From an uncultured Fibrobacter sp. (lineage in GTDB: Bacteria; Fibrobacterota; Fibrobacteria; Fibrobacterales; Fibrobacteraceae): 64,000 bases of DNA. Made by a program: the position numbers and the translations under genes. The DNA is taken from contig CAMKMX010000009.1 in the NCBI GenBank assembly GCA_946414025.1, positions 21,049 through 85,048 on the forward strand, in the 5' to 3' direction. Position 1 is the first letter of the stretch. The number at the start of each line of letters is the position of its first letter. The notes below the pieces were generated by a model. That model did no database searches and had not been told where the DNA came from. It saw nothing but the letters and a program-made list of their open reading frames with translations. Shown here piece after piece: positions 40,460 to 47,006 of this stretch.

Positions 40460-41161
40460 CTAGTCTTCCAAGAAATACTGCACGTTGGTGACCACACGAA
40501 CCTTCTTGACAAAGGGCGTATTTTCGTCACGGTCCTCAATAGAGAACAGCCCCTGGGTTGCCGTCTTGATTTTACCCAGCTTGCTCCTGGAATCCTTGGC
40601 GAATTTTTCGGCAGCAGCACGGGCGTCCTTGTTGGCCTCTTCAATCATTTCGGGCTTGATGGCGTTGAGCCCGTTAAAGCTGTAAATCTTGCGGTAACGG
40701 AAATCCCCTTCGCTGAAGGCGATACCCTGTTTCAAGAGCTCGCCCTGCTTGCCCATGAGTTCGCGAACCTTGTCCACATTCTTGGAGGCCACCGTAAGCG
40801 ACATGGTCACCACATAGCGGAAGGGGCGTTTTTCACTGGTATACAGTTCGCTCTGGGTATCCATAATATCGGGAGATGCTTTGGTGATTTCTTCTTGGGC
40901 GACCCCGTTGTCCAAAAGGAACTTCTCCAGGGCTAAAGTCTTGGCCTGGACCGTCTCGTACAGGGCCGAAAGGTCGTTGCCCGCTTCCTTGAACACGATG
41001 GGCCATATTACATAATCGGCAGGAACTTCCCTCTCAGCAAGCCCGCGGACAAACACCACGCGGTCGCGGTCCTTCACATGGATCATGGCGCAATAGAGGA
41101 AAGCGCCCAGCCCGAGAATGGCGATAGCGAGCACAACTGCTTCTTTGAGTCTTGACTGCAT
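40460..41161 (-). CDS. SIMPL-domain (DUF541) membrane-anchored protein
   Basis: 233 residues: one N-terminal helix (LKEAVVLAIAILGLGAFLYCAMI), then a SIMPL domain starting VVFVRGLAEREVPADYVIWPIVF. FLLDNGVAQEEI and VRVVTNVQYFLED close the fold. SIMPL/BP26 proteins are periplasmic or membrane-tethered and form ring oligomers in some species; the function is poorly known. It probably begins a small operon with the Nudix gene (22-bp gap). Confidence 0.82.
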   Translation of the reverse strand: MQSRLKEAVVLAIAILGLGAFLYCAMIHVKDRDRVVFVRGLAEREVPADYVIWPIVFKEAGNDLSALYETVQAKTLALEKFLLDNGVAQEEITKASPDIMDTQSELYTSEKRPFRYVVTMSLTVASKNVDKVRELMGKQGELLKQGIAFSEGDFRYRKIYSFNGLNAIKPEMIEEANKDARAAAEKFAKDSRSKLGKIKTATQGLFSIEDRDENTPFVKKVRVVTNVQYFLED

Positions 41162-41215: not shown

Positions 41216-41368
41216 ATGAAAACCGCATTTATCGCTTCCGCTATGGCCACCGCTGTTTCATCTGCTTTCGCCACCTATTGCGAACCCTATAGGTTTATCT
41301 GCACCGATCCCTGGGGCGACGATTTGGTTTCAGAAGAAGAAAACGCCGTAGGAATCATTATGCCGTGA
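41216..41368 (+). CDS. Possible small secreted peptide (50 residues)
   Basis: Not in the ORF track. ATG at 41216 opens a frame reading MKTAFIASAMATAVSSAFA, a good signal peptide, then a short acidic tail with two cysteines (TYCEPYRFICTDPWGDDL) and a TGA at 41366. A weak GAAG ribosome site precedes it, and an intrinsic terminator follows at 41415. It could be a real short peptide or the remnant of a longer exported protein. Confidence 0.4.
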   Translation: MKTAFIASAMATAVSSAFATYCEPYRFICTDPWGDDLVSEEENAVGIIMP

Positions 41369-41404: not shown

Positions 41405-41440
41405 CAACTCCACCTCCCTCGCCAAGACGGGGGATTTTTT
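41405..41440 (+). terminator. Intrinsic terminator in a 35-bp direct repeat, copy 1
   Basis: TCCCTCG-CCAAGA-CGGGGGA (7-bp stem, one G-T pair) followed by TTTTTT. The surrounding 35 bp, from CAACTCCACC to ATTTTT, is identical to 42827-42861. Confidence 0.8.
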
Positions 41441-41484
41441 CACAAAACATAAATTTTCCAAATACACTTGAAAATGCTTCGAAA

Positions 41485-41499
41485 ATTGTATATATTTTA
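41485..41499 (+). promoter_or_regulatory. TATATT-type promoter element of the ATPase gene
   Basis: ATTGTATATATTTTA ends only 4 bp before the ATG at 41504. This would give a leaderless or very short-leader transcript unless the true promoter lies further upstream. Confidence 0.35.
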
Positions 41500-41503
41500 A
41501 GAT

Positions 41504-42763
41504 ATGGTTGAAATTATTGATTCCATATCCAAATATAACCTGTGGGGCGGGAACAGCCCGTTTTTGGGCTTTAATCGGCATATTTACCAGGAAAAAGTCC
41601 TAAAAAGCGTGGGGAACAGCCTCGTCAAGGTTGTTGTCGGGCAGCGTCGTGTCGGAAAGAGCTTCGTCTTGCGGCAGATCCTATCAAAAATCGTTGCAGG
41701 CGGAGTTCCTGCCGAAAACACGCTATACATCAATAAGGAATTTCTTGAATTCTCCGCCATAAAATCCGCGGAGGATTTGCAGTCTCTTTACGCTGCTTAC
41801 AAGAGCCGGTTTTCGCCCCAAGGCAAGACATATCTTTTCATTGACGAAATCCAGTATATTGATGGATGGGAAAGATTTGTGAACGCCCGTTCACAGGATT
41901 TTGCCGAGCCCTGCGAAGTATTCATAAGCGGGTCCAATTCGGATATTCTCTCCGGGGAACTCTCGACCATGCTTTCGGGCCGGTATGTCCGGTTTGAAGT
42001 GTTTCCATACAGTTTTGGCGAGTTTTGCGAGTTGACCGACAAGCCGCAGAATGCAACGTCGTTTACCGATTATATTCAGCATGGGGCTTTACCCGAACTG
42101 TTCAACCTTGATTCGGAAGAAATGCGACGGAACTATGTCGAAAGCCTGAAGGATTCCGTGATGCTTCGCGATGTCGTACAGCGTTACAGAATCAAGGACG
42201 CCGCCCTGTTGAACGACCTTTTTGTCTTTCTTTCGAATAATGCCTCGAACTTGATTTCGTTCACGAATGTGGTCAAGAGCCTTAAGGGGCAAGGGCGGAA
42301 AACAAATTACGAGACTGTCTCGACCTATGCGGGGTATTTGGAAAATGCCTTCTTGATACATTCCTGTCCGCGCTTCAACATTCGTGGCAAGGATTCGCTG
42401 TCCGGTCCTGCCAAATACTACATGAACGATTTTTCGTTCCACAATTATCTGTATGCAGGTTTTGGTTATGGAATGGGTTATCTTTTTGAAAATGCCATTT
42501 ATCTGGAACTTCGCAGGCGCGGCTATGATGTGTATGTCGGGGAATTGGACGGATACGAGGTTGACTTTGTCGCGATCAAGAACGATGCGCGCATTTACAT
42601 CCAGGTAGCCTATAAAATGGACGGCGAATCAACCATTGCAAGAGAATACGCTCCGCTAGAAAGAATCAGGGACAGTTACCCAAAATACGTTGTGTCTTTG
42701 GACGAGTTCAAACTACCGTCAAATAACGGAATTTTGCATGTCCGCCCTTGGGAAATACCTTGA
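41504..42763 (+). CDS. AAA ATPase with DUF4143 domain
   Basis: 419 residues. The P-loop is VVVGQRRVGKSFVLRQIL (46-53), Walker B is TYLFIDEIQYIDGW, and a sensor-type arginine/serine stretch SGSNSDILSGELST follows. The C-terminal DUF4143 domain ends with FENAIYLELRRRGYDVYVGEL...EVDFVAIK, resembling a degenerate PD-(D/E)XK core. This AAA_14/DUF4143 family is abundant in anaerobes, function unknown. The gene is bracketed by two copies of a 35-bp terminator repeat and has a more AT-rich sequence than the gene to its right. Confidence 0.85.
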   Translation: MVEIIDSISKYNLWGGNSPFLGFNRHIYQEKVLKSVGNSLVKVVVGQRRVGKSFVLRQILSKIVAGGVPAENTLYINKEFLEFSAIKSAEDLQSLYAAYKSRFSPQGKTYLFIDEIQYIDGWERFVNARSQDFAEPCEVFISGSNSDILSGELSTMLSGRYVRFEVFPYSFGEFCELTDKPQNATSFTDYIQHGALPELFNLDSEEMRRNYVESLKDSVMLRDVVQRYRIKDAALLNDLFVFLSNNASNLISFTNVVKSLKGQGRKTNYETVSTYAGYLENAFLIHSCPRFNIRGKDSLSGPAKYYMNDFSFHNYLYAGFGYGMGYLFENAIYLELRRRGYDVYVGELDGYEVDFVAIKNDARIYIQVAYKMDGESTIAREYAPLERIRDSYPKYVVSLDEFKLPSNNGILHVRPWEIP

Positions 42764-42784
42764 TTTTTAGGATGTTAGTTTGGA

Positions 42785-44389
42785 CTACCAGTTTTTGCAA
42801 ACCGCAGGCTTGTCCTGCTTACAAATCAACTCCACCTCCCTCGCCAAGACGGGGGATTTTTGTTCTTCTATGTAGTAGCGACTCACCAGGGCGGATTTAC
42901 ACTGGGGGAACCTCCCGTAATCCCAGTCCCTGTCGGCGCACCACTCCCAGAAATACTCCAGGCAGTCGTTCTTTTCGGTGCTTTCCAGGCAATCCTTCTT
43001 GAGGGCCGAACAGTCCGCAATCTTGTTGCTTTCGAAGTTGCCTGCCACGCAGTAACGCTTGAGGCCGTCGGCGTAGGCGTTTGACTTGTCCTTGGCATCA
43101 ATTGTATCGGGCAGGAACACGGACCACTTGGTAGTATCCAGCATCATGGCGGCCTTGACCAGGGATGGGTAGCATGTCTCGTTCACCAGGTAGTCGCCTT
43201 CCGCAAAATAGGCTCCAGCCTTCGAATTGGCCGTAACCAAATCTGTGCCGCCGGCTGTCGAATCCCCATAGGGCATTCCAGAGCAATAGACATCCTGGTA
43301 CAGCCTGCAGGCCCTGTTTTTCCAGCCCTCCTTGTCGTCGGGGTCGTCGCCAGCCTGCTTGCAGGAGGCGCTCCTGATGTATTCAAATTCCAGGTAGTCA
43401 TCGCCCTTGATTTTTACGGGGATGTCCACCCGTTTCATGCCCGAAAAAACGCCCATGCCGTTTTCGATGTTGGACACGGGAACCACCCGGGGGTCTTCCA
43501 GAGCTTCCAAAACATAGTCCTCGTAATCCATGTAGGCGCTGTCGGTGGCATAAAAATGGAGCACTGATTCCCCTATGGGGAAAGAGATGTTCGACACGAA
43601 AATGGTGTCAGCGCTATTGTAGCCGCCTATGGTCCAATTGTCGTTGTACCCCAGCCTCTTGGTGTTTTCAAGGCTGTTGCTCAGGGAGAAAACAAAGCCG
43701 GCGGAATCTTCGTCTGCGAAGCTAGAAAGCATCTTGTGGATGGTGGTGTTCATGGATTCGCCACCGTTCACGTTGTCGTAGGTCAGCGTCACCAGCACGC
43801 CGCCCAAATCCTTGTCGTGTTCCGTGTAGAACTTGAAGATATCCATGTCCCTGGGGAAAGTCAAGAAATTCGTTTCAAATCCCTTGCCGTTCAAGGCCAC
43901 ATCCTTGGTCTTGCCGTCCTGCTGGGGAATTTTCACCTTCTTGACAGAGAATTTCTTGGGGATAGTAGCAACGGCCTTATAGGTGGTAGAAACCTTTTCG
44001 CCGGAACTGTCCCACTTGAAGAACGCCTCCATCTTGTAGGAATTGCCAGCCTTGCCCACAAGGCCCGACGACGAATCCGCCACGAAACAGTTGGGCTTGC
44101 CCGTTTCGGGGACAAGCTGCACGGGAGCGGATTTTGCCGTGGTGTCAAAGACCGTCACCTTGGCGCTGTCATAGAACGCGAAGTTTTCTGCCGAGGATTC
44201 TTCCAGTTCATACATCTTGGAAAAACAGATTCGCGGGGACTCGCCCTCCATAATGTATCCGTAGGTGTAAACGCCTGCATAGATTTCCGTGGTGTGGGGG
44301 TAGTATTCCCAGGGCCCGTGAAAATCCCCGCAGGCAGCGAGAAGACCCACCAAAGAAACAACAACCAGATGGCGGATCTGGTCCGCCAT
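42785..44389 (-). CDS. DUF4249-like surface lipoprotein, partner of TonB-dependent receptor
   Basis: The ATG at 44389 is chosen because the track ORF's first 21 codons run through a TCTCGTC heptamer repeat. The product has a lipoprotein signal (GLLAAC-GD) and 534 residues. The opening EIYAGVYTYGYIMEGESPRICFSK, then AKVTVFD and GKAGNSYKMEAFFKW...AVATIPKKFSV, resembles DUF4249 lipoproteins that accompany TonB receptors; I am moderately sure. The C-terminal third is Cys-rich. Its last residues (SPVLAREVELICKQ) are encoded by copy 2 of the 35-bp repeat, so it shares DNA with a plus-strand terminator. Confidence 0.65.
   Translation of the reverse strand: MADQIRHLVVVSLVGLLAACGDFHGPWEYYPHTTEIYAGVYTYGYIMEGESPRICFSKMYELEESSAENFAFYDSAKVTVFDTTAKSAPVQLVPETGKPNCFVADSSSGLVGKAGNSYKMEAFFKWDSSGEKVSTTYKAVATIPKKFSVKKVKIPQQDGKTKDVALNGKGFETNFLTFPRDMDIFKFYTEHDKDLGGVLVTLTYDNVNGGESMNTTIHKMLSSFADEDSAGFVFSLSNSLENTKRLGYNDNWTIGGYNSADTIFVSNISFPIGESVLHFYATDSAYMDYEDYVLEALEDPRVVPVSNIENGMGVFSGMKRVDIPVKIKGDDYLEFEYIRSASCKQAGDDPDDKEGWKNRACRLYQDVYCSGMPYGDSTAGGTDLVTANSKAGAYFAEGDYLVNETCYPSLVKAAMMLDTTKWSVFLPDTIDAKDKSNAYADGLKRYCVAGNFESNKIADCSALKKDCLESTEKNDCLEYFWEWCADRDWDYGRFPQCKSALVSRYYIEEQKSPVLAREVELICKQDKPAVCKNW
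42827..42861 (+). terminator. Intrinsic terminator in a 35-bp direct repeat, copy 2
   Basis: Same hairpin as copy 1, followed by TTTTT. It can terminate the ATPase transcript from the left while encoding part of the C-terminus of the minus-strand lipoprotein. Confidence 0.8.
44369..44389. repeat. Palindrome overlapping a start codon
   Basis: ATGGCGGA-TCTGG-TCCGCCAT: perfect 8-bp arms. On the minus strand the arm ATGGCGGA includes the start codon of the DUF4249-like gene. The element is followed on the plus strand by ATGACGG as in the 10,060-10,118 copies. Confidence 0.75.
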
Positions 44390-44405
44390 GACGGTTCTAC
44401 ATTCT

Positions 44406-44440
44406 ATCTCTCGTCTCTCGCCTCTCGTCTCTCGTCTAGA
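44406..44440. repeat. Heptamer tandem repeat (TCTCGTC type)
   Basis: Units tctcgtc tctcgcc tctcgtc tctcgtc run with period 7 between the receptor gene's 3' end and the lipoprotein start. Confidence 0.85.
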
Positions 44441-47006
44441 AATAATACTCATAACTCAACATAATCGGTAAAAAGGGGAACTGGTATATTTCGTTGTATT
44501 CAGGCGGGTTCTCGCGGGTGTCGTAGAAGGAGTAGAACATATTGTCGTGGTTGGTCAGGTTGATGATGGTCCAGCTGAAATTCCACTTGTTTTCGCGACC
44601 GATATCGATGACCTTCACATCTACGCGGAAATAGTCGGTTTGCCTCTCCGCATTGCGGCTACCCTGCACCACCACGATGTTGTCGGAATAATTCCTGTTT
44701 CCCAAATCTTCCCGATAGAAATACCCCTTGTATCCCGTAATGGGCATGCCCGCCGAATACTTAAGGGCAATAGAGGAGCGGAAATAGCGGCCCTTGACCG
44801 GGTGCTTTTTCAGGGCATCCTCGTCGCCCTTCCAGTTGATGCCCGCATCCAGCTTCAGGGCGTAGGGCTGATGCCAGCTGGGGTAATAGGCTTTGGTTCC
44901 GTCGTCGGAGCGGATAACGCTTATGCTCTGGCTCCAGTTGATTCCGCCAAACCACCAGCCCCTATCCTTGCGAAGCGAAAGTTCGTAACCGAAAGAATAG
45001 CCGGACGCCGTGCCGAAATAATCCGCCATGACCATGCTTTGGGAATTGGCAGAGGCCTCGCTGTCGTCTTCGGTGGAGTCCGAATCCATGGCAAATGTCT
45101 TGAGGTCACTCTGGGTCTTGTAATAGAGCCCGACGGTGGCGTCGTAGCCGTCGAACAAATTCCTGTGGCTGTATTCCGTGGCAAACAGCCACGACGAAGC
45201 GGGTTTCATCTGCTTGCCGTAATTGTCCGTGGTGGCCGGGTAGTAAAACTCATTCAAGGTTTCCTGATCGCTAAACATGATGGAATTCAAGTATTGCAAA
45301 TAATAGCCGCCATAAAATTCAACCGTCTTGGTTTCGTCCAGGTTCACAGTCAAGGACGCCCTCGGTTCTACACCAAAATGCTTAGCCGCCGTCTGGTAGT
45401 TGAATCGCGCACCGTATTGCAGCAAATAATCGGGAGTAACCTTCCAGGCATCTTGCAGGTAGCCCACATGGTGGAAAGGCCTCTGCTTGTCTTCCAGCTT
45501 GGTGTCGGAAACCCGCTCTCCCAGGCGGTCGTATGTATATTCCAGTTCGTAGCCGCCGGTTATCACGTGGTCCTTGACGCCGCGGTAGTTGAGCCACTGC
45601 TTGCCCGAAAAGGTCATCAGGTTCATGCTGATGGACATCAGGTCCGATATTTCCATGTTCTGGTAAAAACGGCTGAAAGCGTAGGTGGAATTGTAATCCC
45701 AGTTGCCGTTAAAACGGTGGTATATCCCGAGAGGAATCGCCACGTTTCCCCAGTCCACGTAAAGGGGGTCAAAGGACAGTTCGTCCTTGCCCACATAGAA
45801 GCTGAACTTGAATCGGGTATCGTCCGTCAAATTGTACAGGAACGTTCCCTGCAGGTCCGTAAACTCGTAGTCCAGATCAAGGTCCAAAAGCCCGATAGCG
45901 TTGCACAGGTCCAGCACATAGCCGATGTAGGTGGTGCGCCCCGCCACCACCCAACGGGCGGGGCCCTGATGGCCTTCGGTATGGAGCTGGGCGGCGAAAG
46001 TGCTTATCTTGATACTGCTCTTGCTGAACCATTCATCGACGGTGTCTTGCCCACCCGCGCGGCCGTCCATCTTGAGTACCGAACTCAGGCGGTTGCCGTA
46101 TTGGGCCGGAAAACCACTCTTGTAGAACTTCACGTCGTCGATACCTTCTACGAGAAATGTGCTGAACAACCCGAAGAAATGGACCGGAGAATAGACCACG
46201 GCGTTATCGAACAGAAACAGGTTCTGGTCCGCGGCGCCGCCTCGAACGTAAATCTTGGAACTGAAATCAGAACTGGCGACCACTCCCGGGAGGGCCTGGA
46301 TACTCTTGATGACGTCGGCCTCGGCGAGGCTCGGCATGCGCTTGATGGACTTGGCCGACACCACGGACTCGCCGGGGCTGCGCTTGGGGCGGCGCCGCAG
46401 CTGCACCACCACCTTCTTGAGTTCGGTGACCTTGCCATTGTTGCCTGCGGCAAGGAGGGAATCTACGTTCATGTCGCTAGCGGAGGCTTTGTGGCCTGGA
46501 TCCTTCGCGACTACGTCGCTTTGGGCCCTATCGCCTCCATGAGGCTCCAGGGCGACATCTTTTGTGCTTGTCATTCTGGAGCGACCAACGGGAGCGATAG
46601 AATCCAATTCATTCTGCACAAACCCGTCGCCCAGGGCCTGGGAAAAGGCGCGTTCAGCGCCGACATACTTGAGTTCGTAACATTTTTCCTTCTCGGCGCC
46701 GGCCGTGTCGGAATTGGTGACGCAGATATTCCAGAGGGTGTCTTCGGGCAGCACCACGCTAAAAGGCGTGCCCACGGTGGTCTGGAGCGCCTCGCCGGAT
46801 TCAAGAATTTCAACGTTGAGCTTTTCGCCCACGGCAAAGGAACTGTCCTGCACCACGCCGTTGAAGACGATGCCCACGACCTTTGCAGAGTCTGCTGTTG
46901 CAGAGCCGAGAACGGGCTGCGCGGAACCTGCCGTCCCTTGCGCAAAAGCAAGAGAGGCCGCCAGGGAGGCAAACAAGCTGGTCCAGATTTTCAACCGGAA
47001 TCTCAC
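44436..47006 (-). CDS. TonB-dependent outer-membrane receptor
   Basis: 856 residues starting at a GTG, with a signal peptide (SLAASLAFA-Q). An N-terminal extension (about 20-195) precedes the plug: VIKSIQALPGVVASSDFSSKIYVRGGAADQNLFLFDNAVVYSP...VKFYKSGFPAQYGNRLSSVLKM. A long barrel follows, ending SYEYYF with the terminal Phe. The ligand is unknown; these importers take up glycans, siderophores or vitamins. The DUF4249-like lipoprotein follows after 46 bp. A hairpin plus T-run lies just upstream (47022-47043), isolating it from the GH5 gene. Confidence 0.88.
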   Translation of the reverse strand: MRFRLKIWTSLFASLAASLAFAQGTAGSAQPVLGSATADSAKVVGIVFNGVVQDSSFAVGEKLNVEILESGEALQTTVGTPFSVVLPEDTLWNICVTNSDTAGAEKEKCYELKYVGAERAFSQALGDGFVQNELDSIAPVGRSRMTSTKDVALEPHGGDRAQSDVVAKDPGHKASASDMNVDSLLAAGNNGKVTELKKVVVQLRRRPKRSPGESVVSAKSIKRMPSLAEADVIKSIQALPGVVASSDFSSKIYVRGGAADQNLFLFDNAVVYSPVHFFGLFSTFLVEGIDDVKFYKSGFPAQYGNRLSSVLKMDGRAGGQDTVDEWFSKSSIKISTFAAQLHTEGHQGPARWVVAGRTTYIGYVLDLCNAIGLLDLDLDYEFTDLQGTFLYNLTDDTRFKFSFYVGKDELSFDPLYVDWGNVAIPLGIYHRFNGNWDYNSTYAFSRFYQNMEISDLMSISMNLMTFSGKQWLNYRGVKDHVITGGYELEYTYDRLGERVSDTKLEDKQRPFHHVGYLQDAWKVTPDYLLQYGARFNYQTAAKHFGVEPRASLTVNLDETKTVEFYGGYYLQYLNSIMFSDQETLNEFYYPATTDNYGKQMKPASSWLFATEYSHRNLFDGYDATVGLYYKTQSDLKTFAMDSDSTEDDSEASANSQSMVMADYFGTASGYSFGYELSLRKDRGWWFGGINWSQSISVIRSDDGTKAYYPSWHQPYALKLDAGINWKGDEDALKKHPVKGRYFRSSIALKYSAGMPITGYKGYFYREDLGNRNYSDNIVVVQGSRNAERQTDYFRVDVKVIDIGRENKWNFSWTIINLTNHDNMFYSFYDTRENPPEYNEIYQFPFLPIMLSYEYYF

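What the first reader, a model, noticed from the sequence alone, without database searches (positions are those of the whole stretch)
41405..42861. 35-bp terminator repeat flanks an AAA/DUF4143 ATPase gene
Seen: an identical 35-bp sequence, containing a hairpin and T-run, lies on both sides of the ATPase gene in the same orientation. Copy 2 encodes the C-terminus of a minus-strand lipoprotein; copy 1 encodes the same peptide without the gene. Inference: the ATPase arrived with duplication of the lipoprotein's 3' end, either as a large target duplication or by recombination at terminators, forming a small mobile cassette.
Basis: partly seen in the sequence, partly recalled or inferred. Interest (0 to 1): 0.55.

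Follow-up and report, generated by a model that had tools for sequence, protein, structure and literature searches.

The report
Defence-like gene inserted with duplicated gene end
In a Fibrobacter genome, a gene of a very common but uncharacterised anti-phage candidate family was acquired downstream of a lipoprotein gene, whose tail now lies on both sides of the newcomer; its promoter carries a family-wide 40-base-spaced repeat pattern that looks like a self-regulation switch.

Summary
A 35-bp direct repeat (41405-41439, 42827-42861) flanks an AAA_14/DUF4143 gene, and it occurs only twice in the genome. It is not a dispersed terminator. It is the 3' coding end of the minus-strand lipoprotein gene, and on the + strand it also reads as an intrinsic terminator.

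Four related Fibrobacter genomes have one copy and no ATPase. One sister species (UBA4223) has the ATPase and both copies, plus an extra gene between them. So the gene was acquired once, together with a duplication of the neighbour's 3' end. The nearest homologues are rumen Bacteroidales proteins (55-58%). The protein belongs to PADLOC candidate PDC-S01 (E 7e-139).

"Small mobile cassette" is only partly supported. Long direct repeats flank 13/41 close homologues against 4/212 other genes. Many of these repeats are genome-dispersed, however, another accessory family is close (2/25), and there are no conserved ends, no integrase and no near-identical second copies.

A by-product may matter more. 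PDC-S01 genes carry palindromic repeats spaced 39-41 bp across the promoter, often reaching the start codon. They occur in 24/41 close and 12/60 distant members against 8/288 other genes. I propose self-repression: the motif differs between subgroups, but the spacing is kept.

The parts
41405..41439 (+). repeat copy 1: displaced partial duplicate of the lipoprotein 3' end; + strand terminator-like hairpin at 41415-41434
42827..42861 (+). repeat copy 2: genuine 3' coding end of the lipoprotein gene (minus strand); + strand terminator-like hairpin 42837-42856, about 74 bp after the ATPase stop
41440..42782 (+). inserted stretch absent from the empty sites of G021, G016, G027 and G002
41504..42763 (+). 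AAA_14 + DUF4143 ATPase, PDC-S01 family (419 aa)
   Evidence: model pLDDT 87.3
41454..41474 (+). iteron 1, palindrome TTTTCCAAATACACTTGAAAA, containing the -35-like TTGAAA; unique in the genome
41495..41513 (+). iteron 2, TTTTAAGATATGGTTGAAA, 40 bp after iteron 1, overlapping the start codon
   Evidence: 12 of 18 identical at 40 bp in the window itself; stronger in homologues
41468..41496 (+). promoter-like TTGAAA-17-TATATT between the two iterons
   Evidence: a consensus match only; count not above shuffles
42785..44452 (-). lipoprotein-like gene, 555 aa as the ORF is called, whose 3' end is duplicated (no Pfam match)
40460..41161 (-). SIMPL (DUF541) gene, the other flank of the site
41216..41368 (+). 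possible 50-aa ORF just left of copy 1, in a variable intergenic region
   Evidence: coding status not tested

Best explanation
A PDC-S01-type gene (AAA+ ATPase with a helical DNA-binding-like middle part and a PD-(D/E)XK-like C-terminal domain; candidate single-gene anti-phage protein) was acquired horizontally, probably from rumen Bacteroidales. It was inserted once, in the common ancestor of this Fibrobacter and UBA4223, immediately downstream of a lipoprotein gene. Shown: single-copy empty sites, duplication of the lipoprotein's 3' end, homologues in Bacteroidales. Inferred: the event was an illegitimate or homology-assisted recombination (single-crossover or end-copying type) that duplicated at least 45 nt, possibly about 77 nt, of the neighbour's 3' end, rather than transposition by a dedicated enzyme. 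The duplication leaves a terminator-like signal on both sides of the new gene and keeps the lipoprotein intact. Also inferred: the gene regulates itself, its protein binding palindromic iterons spaced 39-41 bp that cover the promoter and start codon.
For: Empty sites: G021, G027 and G002 keep the SIMPL-lipoprotein neighbourhood with one repeat and no ATPase; G016 also has one copy. Occupied sister: UBA4223, 96% aa, both copies. Other Fibrobacter homologues are at most 36% identical, whereas Bacteroidales ones are 55-58%, and in the tree the Fibrobacter pair nests among Bacteroidales sequences. Repeat present only twice in the genome. Duplications of neighbouring gene ends recur around homologues: L165 (3' CDS end, 204 nt), L149 (four rmlB 5' fragments separating accessory genes), L285 in a viral contig (174 nt). 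PDC-S01 E 6.7e-139. Iterons: 18-nt window at least 14 identical at 39-41 bp in 24/41 close and 12/60 distant members against 8/288 other genes and 1/25 PF04326 genes; other spacings at background. Architecture resembles AAA+ winged-helix proteins of the Orc1/Cdc6 and RuvB kind in a fold search.
Against: Copy 1 lacks about 34 nt relative to a full duplicate, so the exact original duplication is not recoverable; a shorter copied stretch without a later deletion fits as well. No intermediate or population data; every genome is a single assembly per species. The recombination mechanism is inferred. The iterons in the window itself are a weak pair (12/18), and no binding data exist. Fisher p-values treat related sequences as independent.
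Confidence: 0.62

Rival explanations
1. A true small mobile element: the AAA + nuclease-fold protein (or a trans-acting enzyme) moves its own gene and makes long, variable target duplications.
For: 13/41 close homologues flanked by long direct repeats against 4/212 other genes (p about 1e-8) and 13/1322 same-locus positions; repeats differ in sequence at each locus; sporadic distribution, 29 of 393 Bacteroidales genomes.
Against: The repeats of L142 and L156 (dozens of copies) and L167 (several copies) are genome-dispersed; L158/L159 are iteron arrays and L151 a REP-transposase duplication. Rate among distant members is only 4/59, and another accessory family, PF04326, shows 2/25. Insert edges vary widely (43 to 505 bp upstream of the start) with no common ends. 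Canonical D...(D/E)xK lysine absent in nearly all members (E-D-Q-x-A/S/C/T). In the search at E <= 1e-100 no genome had two near-identical copies.
Confidence: 0.12
2. Pre-existing duplication: the lipoprotein tail was duplicated first (slippage or a failed gene duplication), and the ATPase later landed between the copies by ordinary recombination.
For: The intergenic region is variable among relatives, and copy 1 is partial and diverged between G000 and UBA4223.
Against: No genome with two copies and no ATPase was seen among the close relatives.
Confidence: 0.2
3. Site-specific integration: copy 1 and copy 2 are attL and attR of an element integrated into the 3' end of a gene by an integrase acting in trans or since lost.
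For: The geometry is that of gene-end integration: the gene end is kept intact on one side and a displaced copy lies on the other. L149 shows repeated insertions at the same gene fragment.
Against: No integrase in the insert of either G000 or UBA4223. The repeats of Bacteroidales homologues are unrelated to this one, so there is no common att core.
Confidence: 0.06

Closest known systems
PDC-S01 (PADLOC phage-defence candidate, single gene; AAA_14 PF13173 + DUF4143 PF13635)
   Same: Whole-length match to PDLC04787; ATPase fused to a PD-(D/E)XK-superfamily domain as described for PDC-S01 in PMC12988326; abundant in the rumen (PMC13356809).
   Different: Canonical catalytic lysine of PD-(D/E)XK absent in the subfamily. 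[quoted passage not shown]
Gene-end integrating genomic islands (attL/attR direct repeats)
   Same: Direct repeats in the same orientation, one completing the resident gene.
   Different: No integrase, very small insert, repeat not shared with relatives of the gene.
Sso1545 / PabY2304 archaeal AAA+ ATPases (2fna, 2qen) and Orc1/Cdc6
   Same: Best fold matches: AAA+ module followed by helical DNA-binding-like domains (E 3e-7, TM up to 0.57).
   Different: Low sequence identity (about 14%); role in replication initiation not implied.

Membership tests
PDC-S01 | Profile match over the whole protein | tested here: met
   PDLC04787, 461 bits, residues 23-417
PDC-S01 | Demonstrated anti-phage activity | not testable with these tools
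   Candidate only; validation pending for most PDCs (PMC12988326)
PD-(D/E)XK nuclease (active) | Catalytic D...(D/E)xK | tested here: not met
   E329, D354 and Q367 conserved, but position 369 is A/S/C/T rather than K in nearly all of 99 proteins aligned
AAA+ ATPase | Walker A GKS/T and Walker B DE | tested here: met
   G46, G51, K52, S53, D114, E115 conserved (T at position 53 in two) in all 99 proteins aligned
Transposon with target-site duplication | Empty site with one copy, occupied site with two | tested here: met
   G021, G027, G002 and G016 against G000 and UBA4223; copy 1 is partial
Transposon with target-site duplication | Conserved element ends and duplication of fixed length | tested here: not met
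   Edges and repeat lengths (44 to 386 nt or more) vary, no common ends
Transposon with target-site duplication | Near-identical copies at several places in one genome | tested here: not met
   Six family members in G000 but the others are distant, at most 34% identical; one close member per genome except G130, whose two are 49% and 44% identical to the query
Integrase-borne island / integron cassette | Integrase gene in or next to the insert | tested here: not met
   Only the ATPase (G000), or ATPase plus a beta-propeller-like gene (UBA4223), lies between the repeats

The most novel reading that the evidence does not exclude
PDC-S01 genes, among the commonest defence candidates of prokaryotes, are self-propagating one-gene units. 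Each protein recognises its own diverging palindromic iterons at 40-bp spacing, and the same protein-iteron recognition drives both autoregulation and the insertion of the gene next to gene ends with long target duplications.
Probability: 0.08. Interest if true: 0.85.

Novelty: new member of a known kind. Interest (0 to 1): 0.42.

Why it matters
The locus gives a dated gain, with empty and occupied sister genomes, of a gene from one of the most abundant but uncharacterised defence-candidate families, and it shows that its arrival copied the neighbour's gene end. The family-wide 39-41-bp iterons covering the promoter and often reaching the start codon, with motifs that differ between subgroups, make a long-open point directly testable: what DNA these AAA + nuclease-fold proteins recognise, and how such genes control themselves after transfer into new hosts.

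Tried and rejected
Dispersed-terminator idea for the window repeat: rejected, only two copies in the genome. General claim that direct repeats mark PDC-S01 as an element: weakened, because repeats at L142, L156 and L167 are dispersed, PF04326 genes show 2/25 and distant members 4/59. Empty site for L069/L167 in its genus: no clean joined match found. Nuclease-driven homing: weakened by the missing lysine. Literature on DUF4143, COG1373 and PDC-S01 mobility: nothing found in the open library. Laying the whole genome in the Python box was not available. Sequence search of solved structures gave no clear relative. Viral-contig, plasmid and phage searches show that homologues occur on phage-like contigs and plasmids, closest 52%, but not a carrier of this gene.

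Full report
WHAT IS THERE. They are the only copies in the 2.52-Mb genome. The gene between them, 41504-42763 on the + strand, is AAA_14 + DUF4143 and matches PADLOC's phage-defence candidate PDC-S01 over its whole length, E 6.7e-139. The second copy is the 3' coding end of a 555-aa lipoprotein-like gene on the minus strand; the first encodes the same KSPVLAREVEL peptide in no gene. Read on the + strand, both copies form a GC-rich hairpin followed by T's, so the new gene has terminator-like signals before and after it.

EMPTY AND OCCUPIED SITES. The lipoprotein gene is present throughout the genus. In the close relatives G021, G027 and G002 it lies next to the same SIMPL gene with one repeat copy and no ATPase; G016 also has one copy and no ATPase. 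Fibrobacter sp. UBA4223 carries an ATPase 96% identical at the same place, with both copies, and in addition a 424-aa gene (weak Kelch/beta-propeller matches) between the ATPase and copy 2. The flanks of G000 are closer to UBA4223 (95.8-96.6%) than to G021 (93.8-95.0%), which fits one gain in their common ancestor. Aligned to the empty sites, copy 2 is continuous with the lipoprotein gene from about 42783. Copy 1 follows the SIMPL-side flank and lacks about 34 nt of the gene end. Either a duplication of about 77 nt lost 34 nt in the left copy, or a 45-nt stretch was copied. The sequence cannot decide.

WHERE THE GENE CAME FROM. Other Fibrobacter homologues are at most 36% identical. Rumen and gut Bacteroidales (Paludibacteraceae) have 55-58%, and in a tree of 99 proteins the Fibrobacter pair nests among Bacteroidales sequences. 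Close homologues are sporadic, 29 of 393 Bacteroidales genomes at E <= 1e-100. Horizontal acquisition is therefore well supported.

IS IT A MOBILE CASSETTE? I compared 600-bp flanks of 41 close homologues. Thirteen have long direct repeats (score 30 or more) against 13 of 1322 positions in the same loci and 4 of 212 other genes. Taken alone this looks dramatic, but the classes are mixed. Locus-specific duplications are seen in WIN (the window locus), L149 (four rmlB 5' fragments separating accessory genes), L160, L165 and L177. Dispersed repeats account for L142, L156 and L167. L151 is a REP-transposase duplication, L158 and L159 are iteron arrays, L155 has three local copies, and L174 is a hairpin repeat. 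Distant family members show 4 of 59, and a different accessory family (PF04326) 2 of 25. There are no conserved ends, and no genome has near-identical second copies among the matches at E <= 1e-100. The fold has AAA+, helical and PD-(D/E)XK-like parts (model pLDDT 87; fold search), but the catalytic lysine is replaced by A/S/C/T in nearly all members. I therefore favour recombination that copied the neighbour's gene end over self-transposition. The recombination step is inference.

AN UNEXPECTED FAMILY FEATURE. Upstream of the close homologues lie palindromes, TTTTCAAGTnTAyTTGAAAA in one subgroup and different palindromes in others, repeated every 39-41 bp across the promoter, often with a copy reaching the start codon. 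A window of 18 nt with at least 14 identities at 39-41 bp occurs in 24 of 41 close and 12 of 60 distant members, against 8 of 288 other genes and 1 of 25 PF04326 genes; other spacings are at background. In the window, iteron 1 (41454-41474) contains the -35-like TTGAAA and is unique in the genome; iteron 2 overlaps the ATG. The simplest reading is that the protein represses its own promoter by binding in phase on one face of the helix, four turns apart. The AAA+ proteins in the fold search include DNA-bound Orc1/Cdc6 and RuvB. No binding was tested. I found no description of such iterons in the papers I could search, but that library is partial.

LIMITS. One genome is held per species, so polymorphism within the species is not visible. 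Sequences are related, so the Fisher tests overstate significance. The window's own iteron pair is weak (12 of 18). G000 is 82% complete. Contigs of L165 and L285 end inside the repeat.

Noticed in passing
L149 (G425:C84), 8831, 10292, 11587 and 12984 in ATPase orientation: Four copies of a 45-nt rmlB 5' fragment separate accessory genes (PDC-S01 ATPase, an AlbA/Schlafen-like gene, others); the ATPase-flanking pair differ only at synonymous positions in the aligned frame. Looks like repeated gene additions at one fragment.
   Followed up: partly
window 41216-41368 and the same intergenic site in L004-L007: Variable intergenic region with short possible ORFs: a shared start MKTAF in the window and L005, and endings like GGWDLV/GGWDQV in L004, L006 and L007. 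Possible small secreted peptides or decayed remnants.
   Followed up: no
L064 6285-7556: UBA4223 has an extra 424-aa lipoprotein/beta-propeller-like gene between the ATPase and repeat copy 2, absent from the window.
   Followed up: partly
L158 and L159, both sides of the ATPase gene: Arrays of iterons (TTTTCAAGTCTATTTGAAAA, 40-bp period) lie both upstream and downstream of the gene.
   Followed up: partly
L285 (viral contig IMGVR_UViG_3300038335_000116): A 52% identical homologue on a viral contig is flanked by a 174-nt duplicate of the upstream gene's 3' part (170/174 identical); the contig ends exactly at the repeat.
   Followed up: partly
L155, 8753, 10273 and 11971 in ATPase orientation: Three copies of a 120-139-nt intergenic repeat separate two neighbouring AAA ATPase genes.
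   Followed up: partly
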